Source: an uncultured bacterium
GTDB taxonomy: Bacteria; Cyanobacteriota; Vampirovibrionia; Gastranaerophilales; Gastranaerophilaceae
NCBI GenBank assembly: GCA_949288725.1
Contig: CASELF010000051.1
Location: forward strand, 1 to 54,054
Reading direction: 5' to 3'
DNA length: 54,054 nucleotides
Position 1 is the stretch's first letter, and every line of letters starts with the position of its first letter. Below, one piece after another: positions 37,653-52,880 of this stretch. Both the position numbers and the translations under genes were made by a program. Under the pieces are notes generated by a model. That model saw nothing but the letters and a program-made list of their open reading frames with translations, ran no database searches and was not told the DNA's origin.

Positions 37653-40007
37653 ATGGGAATTACAAAACTATTAACCGGTGCAATAAAAGCCGCCGGAGAA
37701 GAAACTAAAATCACATACGATATTGCCAAAGTTGCTGAAAAAGCAATTTCAAAGGCAACAAACGATGTTGCCTACAGAATAGTTGAAACATTACCTGAAA
37801 CAATCCCTGATATAACAAAAATAATAAAAGCAAACGCAAAATACTATCAATACTCTCCCCAAACACAACAGAAAGCACAAGCCTTACAGGAAGTAATTTT
37901 CAAATACGCCAAAGAAAAAAATGATCTGAGGATTTTTGCCCTTCACGAATCATATATAAAAAATCTTTTAAATTACTGTTCTGATGAAAAGACAGTTTAT
38001 ACTATTGTAGGCAGTATGGGGAATTACAACAAATACTGCAAATTAGCACAACAAATCTTTCAAGGTTTTAAAAAAGCAAAATATCTGAAAATAGAAGATA
38101 AAGAATCTGTTTTGACAAATTTAACCCTAATGGGATTTACAGACCCAAAAAGTTTTAAAACACTTTTCAAATCAAAGGGAATAGATGAGATTGCCTCAGG
38201 AAAATTAAATATAAGTTATCTCAAAGACATCAAATCAACTGATAAAATTGATGAAGACTACTTTTACAAACTTTTTGACAATATTGAAAAAGCAAGAAAT
38301 GAAAGAATTATCCAATCAGGACTTGATAAAAATATCATAAATAAATATCTTAAATTTTTGGATGATAACGTATGTCTTAATCCCGAATTTGCAAATGATT
38401 TTATTACAAAACTGGAAAAAATAAACAATCCGGAACTTGTAAATAAACTTTTGAATAAATTTCCAATGGATGATAATTTTAAAAATTTTGGGCATAAAGA
38501 ACTGTCAAAACTTATTGATAAAGCAGCAGATCATCCTGACGCAATACAAACAGTAATCCAATTACAAAAAACAACTCCGGGAATGACTAATCATTATGCC
38601 AATATTCTTATAAACAAAGAAATTCCGGAAGTTGAGGATTTGTTTCATTATTATCTGAAACTTGAAAAAGCACATCCTGAAATTTGTCAACCGGAAACAT
38701 TATCCTGTCTGCACGAATTTATAAAAAAAGGTGCAGATAAAAAAATGATGGAAGAAATTTGTGAAAAAGCCATTCAAATAAAAAATCCTGATTTTATTCC
38801 GGAAATTTGTAGTTATGCAGGCAAGGATAACTTTGATTTATTAAAGTCAATGTTAAAAAATAATACTTTTGATAGAGAAAGTATATTTAAGTTTAAAACG
38901 AGCCAATATGACAAAGAATTGACTCAAAAAGTTTACCAAGAAACTTACCTTCCTTTATTACAAGGATTAGAAAAATATAATATGCCACAAATGCAAAAAG
39001 AATATATTGCGCAAAAAATTGCAGATTTACAAATAAAATCACCAAAACAATTTGCCCAACTTCAAGATACAAAAATTTTAGATTTGGTAAAAGAAGGAAA
39101 AATTCACCCGAGAATACTTGACGATTATAGTCAAGAAACAGTTTTTACCCCGGAAATTCTTTCTGATGTTCAAAAACTTTTAAAAGGCGAAAGTCTTATC
39201 AAAAAATTTGATACAACAAAAGATATTTTACAAAAGACAACAACAGGTGATGTTATATCAGTCAAAGGGAAATTATACATAAATAACAACGGACATCTTG
39301 AACAATGGAATATGACAGAAGAAAAATTTAATGAACTGTTTCCTCTTGTTGACAGATTTTCTACAAGGCAAGGAATGGACGATTGCTACTTTATAAGTCC
39401 GCTTACCGCAATGTACAAAAACCCAAAAACCAGAGGGGAATATTACAAGATGTTTGAGCAAAAAGGAAATGACATCTATGTAACTATCCCTGCTTATAAA
39501 GACTATTTAGGCGAAGTAAAATTTCCAAACGGACAAATAAAAGTTCAAGATATTAATGCTGATGCAGCAAAAAATGTTCAAATGCTTGAACAAGCCTATG
39601 CTCGTACCGCTTTAAGAACACAACAAGAAGTACATAGTCAGGAAATGTTAAATCCTTTAACCACAGATAATTTAAACTATCTACAAAATCGTATCAGAAG
39701 CGGTCAGCTACGCAATTCAATGCGTGAACTATTCCCGCAAAATACACTTATCAGAAAGTTTGATGACAAAAACCAAATAATACAAATATTAAATGATTTT
39801 GCTAATGATAAAAGAACAATTATTCAAGAAGGCAGTTTGCTTCGTACCGGCGGCGAAATAGGACATGCCAGAACAATTTCCGGATACAATCCGCAAACCC
39901 AAACATTGACCTTAATCGATCCAAATAGAACAGCCGTTGAAGAAACTGTCCCTCTTGATAAGTTTATGGAAAAAATTCTATCAATTTTTGTCGCAAGACC
40001 TGTATAA
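37653..40007 (+). CDS. large helical protein with C-terminal calpain-like (C2) cysteine protease domain
   Basis: A 784-aa protein without signal peptide. Residues 1 to about 540 are helical, repeat-like and without a recognised family. The last 220 residues resemble a calpain catalytic core: Q573 and C578 in RQGMDDCYFISPLTAM (oxyanion Gln and nucleophile), H738 in EIGHARTISGY and N758 in LIDPNRTAVE. The Cys-His distance of 160 and His-Asn distance of 20 are close to eukaryotic calpains. It is probably a regulated intracellular or secreted protease; substrate unknown. GGGGAAATT is the likely ribosome-binding region. A TATATACATAGGGG motif precedes it. Confidence 0.75.
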   Translation: MGITKLLTGAIKAAGEETKITYDIAKVAEKAISKATNDVAYRIVETLPETIPDITKIIKANAKYYQYSPQTQQKAQALQEVIFKYAKEKNDLRIFALHESYIKNLLNYCSDEKTVYTIVGSMGNYNKYCKLAQQIFQGFKKAKYLKIEDKESVLTNLTLMGFTDPKSFKTLFKSKGIDEIASGKLNISYLKDIKSTDKIDEDYFYKLFDNIEKARNERIIQSGLDKNIINKYLKFLDDNVCLNPEFANDFITKLEKINNPELVNKLLNKFPMDDNFKNFGHKELSKLIDKAADHPDAIQTVIQLQKTTPGMTNHYANILINKEIPEVEDLFHYYLKLEKAHPEICQPETLSCLHEFIKKGADKKMMEEICEKAIQIKNPDFIPEICSYAGKDNFDLLKSMLKNNTFDRESIFKFKTSQYDKELTQKVYQETYLPLLQGLEKYNMPQMQKEYIAQKIADLQIKSPKQFAQLQDTKILDLVKEGKIHPRILDDYSQETVFTPEILSDVQKLLKGESLIKKFDTTKDILQKTTTGDVISVKGKLYINNNGHLEQWNMTEEKFNELFPLVDRFSTRQGMDDCYFISPLTAMYKNPKTRGEYYKMFEQKGNDIYVTIPAYKDYLGEVKFPNGQIKVQDINADAAKNVQMLEQAYARTALRTQQEVHSQEMLNPLTTDNLNYLQNRIRSGQLRNSMRELFPQNTLIRKFDDKNQIIQILNDFANDKRTIIQEGSLLRTGGEIGHARTISGYNPQTQTLTLIDPNRTAVEETVPLDKFMEKILSIFVARPV

Positions 40008-49446: not shown

Positions 49447-50100
49447 ATGTGGGACAAATTAAAAGAACAATTTAATCTTTTAAAACTTGAGAAAAAAAGA
49501 CTCTATCTTATTACGGATTCTGAAAAATTTATATCTAAAGATGATTTTTTAGATGCAATAGCTTCTGCCCTGCAAGGTGGAGTTGATATTGTTCAATTAA
49601 GAGAAAAAATAATTCCTGATAATGTTATTGTAGAAATTGCACGTAAGGTTAGAACTTTGTGTGATGAATACGGCGCAACTTTTTTAGTAAATGACAGACC
49701 TGATATTGCAAGAATTTCAGAAGCTGATGGAGTTCATCTGGGACAAGATGATATAAGCGTAGAAGATGCAAGAGAAATTCTGGGACAAAACGCTATTATT
49801 GGAAAATCCTGTCATAATACTGATGAAATTATTTCTGCAGTGAATGAAGGTGCTGATTATGTTACCTTTGGCCCAATTTTTACTACTTTGTCAAAATCAG
49901 GAGAATATATCGATTTTGCACAAATTCAATGGGTGCTTGAAAATATCGATATTCCAGTATTTTTAACAGGTGATATTACACTTACTAACATTCAAGAACT
50001 TTCTCAAACAGGTGCAAACAAATTTGTTATTACAAATTCTATAATGTATGCAAGAGTTCCTGAATATTCAGCAAGAGAAATTTTAAAATATCTGCCCTAA
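49447..50100 (+). CDS. thiE: thiamine-phosphate synthase
   Basis: A 217-aa TIM-barrel enzyme joining the pyrimidine and thiazole moieties of thiamine. Motifs: LYLITDSE, VDIVQLREK, FLVNDRPDIARISEADGVHL with GQDDI, IIGKSCHNTDE and VTFGPIFTT. The C-terminal phosphate-binding loop is less canonical (FLTGDITLTNI instead of a Gly-rich AIGGI), so substrate or activity could differ (TenI-like). An N-terminal extension of about 18 residues is present. No other thiamine genes in the window. The stop overlaps the convergent gene by 4 bases. Confidence 0.85.
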   Translation: MWDKLKEQFNLLKLEKKRLYLITDSEKFISKDDFLDAIASALQGGVDIVQLREKIIPDNVIVEIARKVRTLCDEYGATFLVNDRPDIARISEADGVHLGQDDISVEDAREILGQNAIIGKSCHNTDEIISAVNEGADYVTFGPIFTTLSKSGEYIDFAQIQWVLENIDIPVFLTGDITLTNIQELSQTGANKFVITNSIMYARVPEYSAREILKYLP

Positions 50101-51335
50101 ACTAATTTAATGATATTTCCTTGTTTATCGAATTCCATTAACATTTCGTTTTTGCCATCGGATCTTTCATAATATATTTTTGGCAATCCTTCTTTTGTAT
50201 ATGCGACATGTTTTTCGAAATCGGTTTTATAATTCATTACAGTAACATCTTTTGAACCATCTTTAGATATTACCGTAAGTTTTTCGGAACCATCTGCTAA
50301 ACGTTCACTAATTGATTGGTTATCTTGATTAAATGTAATCGTTTTTGGTTTGTCCAAATCAGTTTGATCTAAAATTGCAGCAAGATTTCCGTTTAAATCA
50401 AATCTATGAACCACTATTCCACCACTTTCAGTCATTGTTGAAATAGCTTCTAATGCTCCATTTGAAAAATATACTTTTTCTCCTTGAACTTGTTTTGGAT
50501 CATAACCCAAAACATACGCTTGTGCAGGAACCAAGTCTTTATCTGCCATTGGATTTTTATTTGTTAAATTTGGAACAGGAGATTTTGTTTCTACAGAACG
50601 ACTTGCTACAACACCATTTATGAATTGAAGTTTTTCTTTTGAATGTTGGTTTTCATCCTTTGTTACAATACTTGTTATATTTCCGTTTTTATCAAAATCT
50701 GTTTTTCTTCCCATATTTTGAGCTTCATTTGTTTCAACGATGGAAGAAGTTTTTTCTTTTAAATTTACAATATATTCTTTTACAGTTCCATTTGGCTCAT
50801 ATTCCTTTTCTATTACCATAAATGGTTTGCCATCTTGGTATGCTGTTTCATTCAAAATTTTACCTGTTTCAGGTGAATATTTTACTAATTGAATTAGCGG
50901 AATTCTAGGTAATTTACCTTTTTCAATTATATTTAAATTTTCTTGGACTTGAACAAGACGTCCTTGTGCATCGTATGTTTCTATTTTATTTATAGCATCA
51001 TTCGGAGCTTGAACTTCCATTTTATAGACAACGGTGCCATCATTTGTTTTCTTGATGATGCTATCCAATTCACCCATTGAATTATAAATTTTTTCACCTT
51101 GTATTGCTTTTATTGCTTCAGGTTGCAATATTGTCGGAAGAAGCGGTTGAACATTCTTTGCCACAGGTCTTGAAATTGATGGTGCATTATATGATGCTAA
51201 TGCATTCATTCCGTTTAAATTTTGATTATTGCTAATTTGACCATTTTGTTGAGGTTGTTGAATCGGATTTGTATTTAACCCGTTTGGCATACTTATATTT
51301 CTAACCATTGGTAAAGAATTGATTGAGTCTATCAT
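50097..51335 (-). CDS. hypothetical 412-aa protein, copy B (YD-like repeats)
   Basis: Paralogue of the protein at 34529-35767 with the same length and layout: an Asn/Gln/Pro-rich start, then the shared LPTILQPEA block, VVYKM, QAPND, INKI, PAQ, LGYDPK and VQGEK, and short strand repeats (FDKNGNITSIVTKDEN, FDKQGNIIKLV). More divergent from its partner than the two ManC proteins are from each other. Lies divergently from manC copy 2 across a 174-base gap. AAAGGCGG precedes the ATG. Function unknown. Confidence 0.75.
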   Translation of the reverse strand: MIDSINSLPMVRNISMPNGLNTNPIQQPQQNGQISNNQNLNGMNALASYNAPSISRPVAKNVQPLLPTILQPEAIKAIQGEKIYNSMGELDSIIKKTNDGTVVYKMEVQAPNDAINKIETYDAQGRLVQVQENLNIIEKGKLPRIPLIQLVKYSPETGKILNETAYQDGKPFMVIEKEYEPNGTVKEYIVNLKEKTSSIVETNEAQNMGRKTDFDKNGNITSIVTKDENQHSKEKLQFINGVVASRSVETKSPVPNLTNKNPMADKDLVPAQAYVLGYDPKQVQGEKVYFSNGALEAISTMTESGGIVVHRFDLNGNLAAILDQTDLDKPKTITFNQDNQSISERLADGSEKLTVISKDGSKDVTVMNYKTDFEKHVAYTKEGLPKIYYERSDGKNEMLMEFDKQGNIIKLV

Positions 51336-51509
51336 ACTACCGCCTTTATAAAAATTTCACACTACACTATATCTATAAAGGTATAACAAATAATTTTATT
51401 GCCAATTTGTAACTTTTTGTAAATTGTTAATTCTATTGCAATATTTAGGGTTTTTTAATTTTTATAGTATAATAAATTCAAGGGATATTTTTATGAAGAA
51501 GGAGCAAAG

Positions 51510-52880
51510 ATGTTCGGAGTAATACTAGCAGGGGGTTCAGGAAGTAGATTATGGCCATTATCAAGAGAATTATATCCTAAGCAACTCTTGAATTTATATG
51601 CTGAAAAAAGCCTATTACAATCTACTTTTGAGAGATTAAATAAGTTTATTCCTGCCGAAAATATTATCAGTGTTGCAAATACTAAACATCAAGCTAATGT
51701 TAAAATGCAACTTGGAAAATTGAGTGAAAATTCAATTATCCTATCTGAACCGATTTCTAAAAACACTGCTCCTGCTATTGCTCTTAGTGTAAAATATCTT
51801 ATCGAAAATAATAAATCAGACGAAACTGTTCTTGTTGTTCCATCTGATTTGCTAATCGAAGATAACGAAAAATTTATTCAAACAATAAAAGAAGCTCAAC
51901 CGCTTGTTGATAAGGGTTATATTGTAACTTTCGGGATAAAACCTAATTACCCTGAAACAGGATTTGGTTATATTTGCGCAGATAATAATATCGTTAAAAG
52001 TTTCACTGAAAAACCTGACAAACAAACCGCTGAAGAATATATTAAAAAATCAAATTATTTCTGGAATAGCGGAATTTTTATGTTTAAAGCTTCTGTTATG
52101 ATGAAAGAATTTGACAAATATTGTCCTGAAATTTCTGCAATAATCAATAAAATTAACTGTTCCGATAAAAATATTCCATTTACTGAATTTGAAAAAATGC
52201 CATCCATTTCAATCGATTATGCGGTTATGGAAAAAAGTGATAATATTGCAATGGTTGAATTAAAATCTGACTGGAAAGATTTAGGTTCTTGGAAATCTAT
52301 TTATGAAGTTAGCCCAAAAGATAAAAATAATAATGTTTTTGTCGGTCACGTTATCGATAAGGATTCTAAAAATTCCTTTGTTTACGCTTCATCAAAACTT
52401 GTAGCAACTATCGGACTTGAAGATACCGTTGTTATAGAAACTGAAGATGCCATTTTAGCTTGCAAAAAAGAACTTACAGAAGATGTTAAACAAATTTATG
52501 AAACACTAAAAGAGCAACACGATGATACCCAAAAAGTTCATAAAACCGTTTACAGACCTTGGGGATTTTATACAGTGATTGCAGAAGGAAAAGGTTTCCA
52601 AACAAAGATTATTCACGTAAATCCGGGACAACAATTATCTGTTCAATCACATAACCATAGAAGTGAACATTGGGTTATGTTATCAGGTATGGCAAAAGTC
52701 GTTCTGGAAGGGGAAGATCATATTCTATCTCCAGGACATAGTATTGATATCCCGGTAAAAGCTATCCATTCATTACAAAATCCTTTTGAAGAAGACTTGG
52801 AAATTATTGAAGTTCAAAAAGGTGATATACTTTCTGAAGATGATATTATCAGATATGAAGATATCTACGGTCGTGTCTAA
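51510..52880 (+). CDS. manC: mannose-1-phosphate guanylyltransferase / mannose-6-phosphate isomerase, copy 2
   Basis: A 456-aa bifunctional GDP-mannose enzyme, paralogous to 32966-34336. N-terminal FGVILAGGSGSRLWPLSREL, FTEKPD and WNSGIFMF; C-terminal cupin with YRPWGFYTVIAEG, HNHRSEHW and LSPGHSIDIPVKAIHSLQN. All catalytic segments are intact in both copies, so neither looks like a pseudogene. GAAGGAGC precedes the ATG. The upstream TTTTTATAGTATAATAA is shared with copy 1, including the following AGGGAT. Confidence 0.93.
   Translation: MFGVILAGGSGSRLWPLSRELYPKQLLNLYAEKSLLQSTFERLNKFIPAENIISVANTKHQANVKMQLGKLSENSIILSEPISKNTAPAIALSVKYLIENNKSDETVLVVPSDLLIEDNEKFIQTIKEAQPLVDKGYIVTFGIKPNYPETGFGYICADNNIVKSFTEKPDKQTAEEYIKKSNYFWNSGIFMFKASVMMKEFDKYCPEISAIINKINCSDKNIPFTEFEKMPSISIDYAVMEKSDNIAMVELKSDWKDLGSWKSIYEVSPKDKNNNVFVGHVIDKDSKNSFVYASSKLVATIGLEDTVVIETEDAILACKKELTEDVKQIYETLKEQHDDTQKVHKTVYRPWGFYTVIAEGKGFQTKIIHVNPGQQLSVQSHNHRSEHWVMLSGMAKVVLEGEDHILSPGHSIDIPVKAIHSLQNPFEEDLEIIEVQKGDILSEDDIIRYEDIYGRV

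What the first reader, a model, noticed from the sequence alone, without database searches (positions are those of the whole stretch)
37653..40007. Bacterial calpain-like cysteine protease with a long helical N-terminal region
Q573, C578, H738 and N758 occur in the right order and with spacing close to eukaryotic calpain cores, within RQGMDDCYFISPL, GHARTI and DPN segments. The first 540 residues look like helical repeats without known family and may recognise substrates or control the protease. There is no signal peptide, so it may act inside the cell or be exported by a special system. This is the strongest candidate for an undescribed protein system in the window.
Basis: partly seen in the sequence, partly recalled or inferred. 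Interest (0 to 1): 0.6.

Follow-up and report, generated by a model that had tools for sequence, protein, structure and literature searches.

The report
Divergent calpain-family protease, gut Melainabacteria
This gene encodes a probable protein-cutting enzyme, a distant bacterial cousin of animal calpains with an altered active site and a long helical arm; it belongs to a large, apparently unreported expansion of such proteins in gut bacteria related to cyanobacteria.

Summary
The ORF is real (37653-40007, +, 784 aa). Its last ~230 residues are a calpain-fold (peptidase family C2) cysteine peptidase: the predicted structure (pLDDT 88) has calpains as its 22 best PDB matches (VIA Z 14.2), a 24-sequence profile hits human calpain-9 (E 1.7e-9), and direct homologues pass the Pfam Peptidase_C2 cut-off. 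Q573, C578 and H738 are conserved. All 11 sequences of this subfamily have Asp there and a Gln-Cys spacing of 5 instead of 6; they form one clade (support 100). Residues ~45-490 are confidently helical and homologous to the region before the same domain in giant (2-4 kaa) paralogues. The genome is Candidatus Gastranaerophilales. The domain occurs in 183 of 288 genomes of the family, often in several copies. The gene stands alone next to murA, with no linked inhibitor; relatives carry unrelated genes there, including a subtilase-like protein. It evolves faster than its neighbours (dN/dS ~0.2) but under constraint. Best reading: an active C-H-D endopeptidase whose helical arm selects substrate; export is plausible, unproven. 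A new variant of a known kind.

The parts
37653..40007 (+). ORF of 784 aa: stand-alone helical-arm plus calpain-like (C2) cysteine peptidase
   Evidence: orthologues
37653..37784 (+). residues 1-44: predicted disordered, fastest-evolving tail (dN/dS 0.42-0.68)
   Evidence: (pLDDT <50)
37785..39122 (+). residues ~45-490: helical region, homologous to the region before the calpain domain in giant paralogues; proposed substrate or partner arm
   Evidence: pLDDT mostly 80-95, helices throughout; e.g. G398 E 3.5e-17, G513 E 8e-16
39135..39317 (+). residues ~495-555: small conserved module directly before the protease core (GDVISVKGKLYINNNG)
   Evidence: (G532 invariant), secondary structure
39315..40004 (+). 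residues 555-784: calpain protease-core fold
   Evidence: Z 14.2, 201 residues aligned to 1tlo
39369..39371 (+). Q573, oxyanion-hole Gln
   Evidence: invariant in A1
39384..39386 (+). C578, nucleophile
   Evidence: invariant in A1
39864..39866 (+). H738, general base
   Evidence: invariant in A1
39918..39920 (+). D756, third catalytic position (Asn in most calpains)
   Evidence: invariant in A2; aligned with N of NPW

Best explanation
The protein is a member of a divergent, Gastranaerophilales-expanded branch of peptidase family C2. The C-terminal 230 residues form the calpain core and most likely cut protein substrates with C578 as nucleophile, H738 as base, D756 orienting the His, and Q573 in the oxyanion hole. 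The helical N-terminal arm most likely binds and presents the substrate or a partner. Shown: homology, predicted fold, conservation of the four residues in the clade, purifying selection, lack of a signal peptide and of a linked inhibitor, and an accessory, exchangeable genomic position. Inferred: proteolytic activity, the role of the arm, and the place of action. I think it more likely acts outside the bacterium (gut host or neighbouring microbes, about 45%) than on a cytoplasmic target (about 35%), with maturation of the giant paralogues third.
For: Core model pLDDT 88; Foldseek top 22 hits all calpains, E from 8.7e-6; VIA Z 14.2, rmsd 3.8, 201 residues against calpain-1. Profile against PDB: calpain-9 E 1.7e-9, aligning the Cys motif, His motif and NPW. 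Link to Pfam: P0001 matches the own-genome giant at E 8.9e-32, and that giant scores 30.0 bits against a 23.8 cut-off for PF00648. Q, C, H invariant in 24 domains; D invariant in the clade; clade support 100. Core dN/dS 0.14-0.19. Helical arm shared with giants; giants show sub-threshold EF-hand and LysM matches. Distribution 183/288 genomes in the family, up to 8 or more matches per genome. The position beside murA holds other genes in relatives.
Against: P0001 itself gets no Pfam Peptidase_C2 match. The one-residue deletion between Q and C could disturb the oxyanion hole; the models' active-site geometry was not measured. No activity data exist. No export signal is visible, and presence of an HlyB-type exporter does not track the calpain domain (7/10 against 21/36 genomes, Fisher p 0.72).
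Confidence: 0.72

Rival explanations
1. A cytoplasmic regulatory protease of the bacterium itself, with the helical arm as a sensor or adaptor (same enzyme, different place of action).
For: No signal peptide or transmembrane segment; same position beside murA in four species.
Against: Patchy distribution in the genus, 2-9 times higher dN/dS than murA, hisS and fabF, and unrelated genes at the same position in relatives do not look like housekeeping.
Confidence: 0.33
2. A trans-acting maturation peptidase, or a relic of one, for the giant multi-domain paralogues.
For: Giants carry the same helical-plus-calpain unit and some carry two calpain domains.
Against: Giants have their own calpain domains with canonical motifs; G014 and G035 gave only one A1-domain match at this threshold, the P0001-type gene itself.
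Confidence: 0.12
3. A non-peptidase homologue that uses the fold for binding only.
For: Asn to Asp change and one-residue shorter Q-C loop; non-peptidase C2 homologues exist (PMC4631099).
Against: Q, C, H and D are invariant in the clade; PalB-type Asp variants are regarded as possibly functional (PMC4631099).
Confidence: 0.15
4. A contact-dependent or polymorphic toxin with a linked immunity protein, or an anti-phage effector.
For: Accessory, fast-evolving, variable locus; papain-like toxins appear among weaker fold matches.
Against: No conserved adjacent immunity candidate: neighbours P0003 and P0004 stay in G024, which lacks the gene at this position; no PADLOC match; no relative found in viral contigs.
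Confidence: 0.1

Closest known systems
Peptidase family C2 (calpain) catalytic core, e.g. human calpain-1, -3, -9
   Same: Fold over 201 residues; Gln, Cys, His in order; His in GHA and third residue directly before Pro
   Different: Asp instead of Asn; Q-C spacing 5 instead of 6; no C2-like or EF-hand domains after the core; calcium-site-1 Asp replaced; ~11% identity in the structural alignment
Bacterial calpain homologues (Rawlings 2015, PMC4631099), including Porphyromonas gingivalis Tpr and cyanobacterial forms
   Same: Peptidase domain at the C-terminus, no signal peptide, patchy distribution, multidomain
   Different: Separate clade from the eight cyanobacterial PF00648 proteins; helical arm; Asp triad; much higher copy number in this order
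PalB/Rim13 calpains
   Same: Asp in place of catalytic Asn (PMC4631099)
   Different: Eukaryotic; different accessory domains; within the bacterial set the N/D state needs 3 changes on the tree, so the Asp here looks independent

Membership tests
Peptidase family C2 | Significant sequence relationship of the peptidase domain to known members | tested here: met
   Profile A1 to calpain-9 E 1.7e-9; direct homologue passes PF00648 cut-off; P0001 alone has no Pfam C2 match
Peptidase family C2 | Calpain protease-core fold (two subdomains) | tested here: met
   predicted model
Peptidase family C2 | Oxyanion Gln, nucleophilic Cys and His in that order | tested here: met
   Q573, C578, H738
Peptidase family C2 | Third catalytic residue Asn, or Asp as in PalB | tested here: met
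   D756, 11/11 in the clade; Asp accepted for PalB (PMC4631099)
Peptidase family C2 | Endopeptidase activity | not testable with these tools
   needs purified protein
Classical (calcium-dependent, EF-hand) calpains | Asn in the triad | tested here: not met
   D756
Classical (calcium-dependent, EF-hand) calpains | C2-like and EF-hand domains after the core | tested here: not met
   Protein ends with the core
Classical (calcium-dependent, EF-hand) calpains | Calcium site 1 Asp three residues before the oxyanion Gln (ligand identity from my knowledge of mu-calpain) | tested here: not met
   S570 in P0001; profile has Ser against Asp of calpain-9 TRTDICQ
Polymorphic toxin with immunity | Conserved adjacent immunity gene | tested here: not met

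The most novel reading that the evidence does not exclude
Gut Melainabacteria (Gastranaerophilales) carry a large, fast-evolving arsenal of calpain-fold proteases, from 300 to more than 4000 aa, that are exported and act on gut host or microbial proteins; the window gene is the prototype of a stand-alone C-H-D subfamily whose locus exchanges with another protease type.
Probability: 0.25. Interest if true: 0.75.

Novelty: new variant of a known kind. Interest (0 to 1): 0.47.

Why it matters
Bacterial calpains were described as rare (66 homologues in the 2015 survey, PMC4631099), with only one biochemically studied. Here most genomes of one gut-associated family carry the domain, often in several copies. 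That gives a dense natural set for the question of what bacterial calpains do and how the family reached eukaryotes, and a clade with a natural Asn-to-Asp change and a shortened oxyanion loop to test the limits of the calpain active site.

Tried and rejected
Pfam, NCBIfam, PADLOC and PHROGs searches of P0001: no significant assignment. PDB phmmer with P0001 alone: no hit of note. T4SS marker VirB4: none in the genome. A T1SS operon exists (G000:C102), but its presence in the genus is not associated with the calpain domain, so T1SS export of P0001 is not supported. Viral contigs: no relative. Literature: no paper listed from the held library links calpain with Melainabacteria or Gastranaerophilales. 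Small neighbours as inhibitors: rejected.

Full report
Observation. The ORF at 37653-40007 (+) encodes 784 residues without interruption. The genome (G000, 2.2 Mb, 96% complete) belongs to Candidatus Gastranaerophilales, judged from the named contigs carrying the closest orthologues (86% and 70% identity).

Homology and fold. P0001 alone has no significant Pfam or NCBIfam match. In the same genome it matches two other places, one in a 2263-codon open frame (E 8.9e-32), and that protein passes the Pfam Peptidase_C2 cut-off (30.0 against 23.8 bits). A profile of 24 domains (A1) finds calpain-9 in the PDB at E 1.7e-9, with the Cys and His-to-NPW segments in register. The AlphaFold model of residues 501-784 has mean pLDDT 88. 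Foldseek lists calpains as the 22 best matches, and VIA-align gives Z 14.2 over 201 residues to calpain-1, with the first non-calpain at 9.4. The catalytic domain is therefore of the calpain family, not merely papain-like.

Active site. Q573, C578 and H738 are invariant in all 24 domains. D756 is invariant in the orthologues and aligns with the catalytic Asn of calpain NPW. In a wider set of 67 domains the P0001 clade (11 rows) always has Asp and a Q-C spacing of 5; most others have Asn and a spacing of 6, a few 5 or 7. The clade has support 100, and the N/D state needs three changes on the tree. Asp in this position is known from PalB and regarded as compatible with activity (PMC4631099).

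Rest of the protein. Residues 1-44 are predicted disordered and ~45-490 are helices, mostly at pLDDT 80-95. The arm is homologous to the region before the calpain domain in giant paralogues. No transmembrane or signal segment. The giants show sub-threshold EF-hand and LysM matches near the N-terminus, and some have hydrophobic segments in the middle.

Distribution. A1 matches in 183 of 288 genomes of the family and 34 of 41 genera, with up to 8 places scored per genome; the P0001-type N-terminal region in 27 of 288. The own genome has five A1 places: P0001, two in a split giant gene, a ~755-aa protein and a ~298-aa protein. PF00648 itself rings in 48 of 386 genomes of the phylum; the eight strongest of these, from other families of the phylum, form a separate clade.

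Locus. P0001 is divergent from murA in four species (G000, G005, G035, G029), with murA 90-99% identical and P0001 38-86%. In other genus members the place beside murA holds unrelated genes: a 548-550 aa protein ending in GTSFATP, resembling subtilases (Pfam E 0.009, below cut-off; no PDB match) in G024 and G009; a 189-aa protein in G548 and G012; a 229-aa protein in G022. The small genes beyond hisS stay in G024, where P0001 is absent from the site, so they are not dedicated inhibitors. dN/dS is 0.20-0.28 for P0001 against 0.02-0.09 for murA, hisS and fabF; the core is 0.14-0.19, the helical part 0.18-0.35 and the tail 0.42-0.68.

Mechanism. The best-supported reading is an active endopeptidase with a C-H-D triad and an arm that selects substrate. 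Activity is inferred from residue conservation under constraint; the role of the arm is inferred from its shape and faster divergence. The place of action is open. Patchy presence, rapid change, exchangeable position and surface-type features of giant relatives favour action outside the cell, but no export route was found, and the T1SS of this genome does not track the domain in the genus.

Known or new. Bacterial calpains are known (PMC4631099), mostly C-terminal domains in proteins without signal peptides; those fused to WXG domains were suggested by a reviewer to be T7SS toxins. New here, as far as the held library shows, are the scale of the expansion in Gastranaerophilales and the C-H-D, short-loop clade. 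I rate it a new variant of a known kind.

Noticed in passing
L034:4859-12998 (-) with L170:1013-2635 (-), contig G000:C75: The giant calpain gene of this genome is split into three consecutive ORFs (540, 2241 and 465 aa), while a relative (G018, L037) has one intact 3629-aa ORF with an internal and a C-terminal calpain domain.
   Followed up: partly
L142:3300-4946, L143:3048-4700, L166:250-1641: Subtilase-like proteins (SHG, GTS-A-P motifs) share an N-terminal segment around ACGKRSILETSP; L148:9172-11046 has a very similar N-terminal segment (residues ~13-29) with a different remainder, suggesting an exchangeable N-terminal signal.
   Followed up: partly
window:37653-40007: Between G000 and G005 the 3' half of the gene (calpain core) has about a quarter of the synonymous divergence of the helical part (dS 0.12 against 0.47), suggesting a recombination tract.
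   Followed up: partly
window:32966-35767 and 50097-52880: A gene pair (456-aa mannose-1-phosphate guanylyltransferase/isomerase-like protein and a 412-aa protein with weak MORN/RHS-like repeats) occurs twice in the window in opposite orientation.
   Followed up: no
L171:475-2742: A second calpain-type protein (755 aa, QGLTGDCW, HAYSI, NPWD) in the own genome; similar 757-780 aa frames recur in the genus.
   Followed up: no
L048:2415-9410: A 2331-aa protein from another family of the order combines many RTX-like or beta-helical repeats (GDDxIxNxGxxxTI) with a C-terminal calpain-like domain.
   Followed up: no
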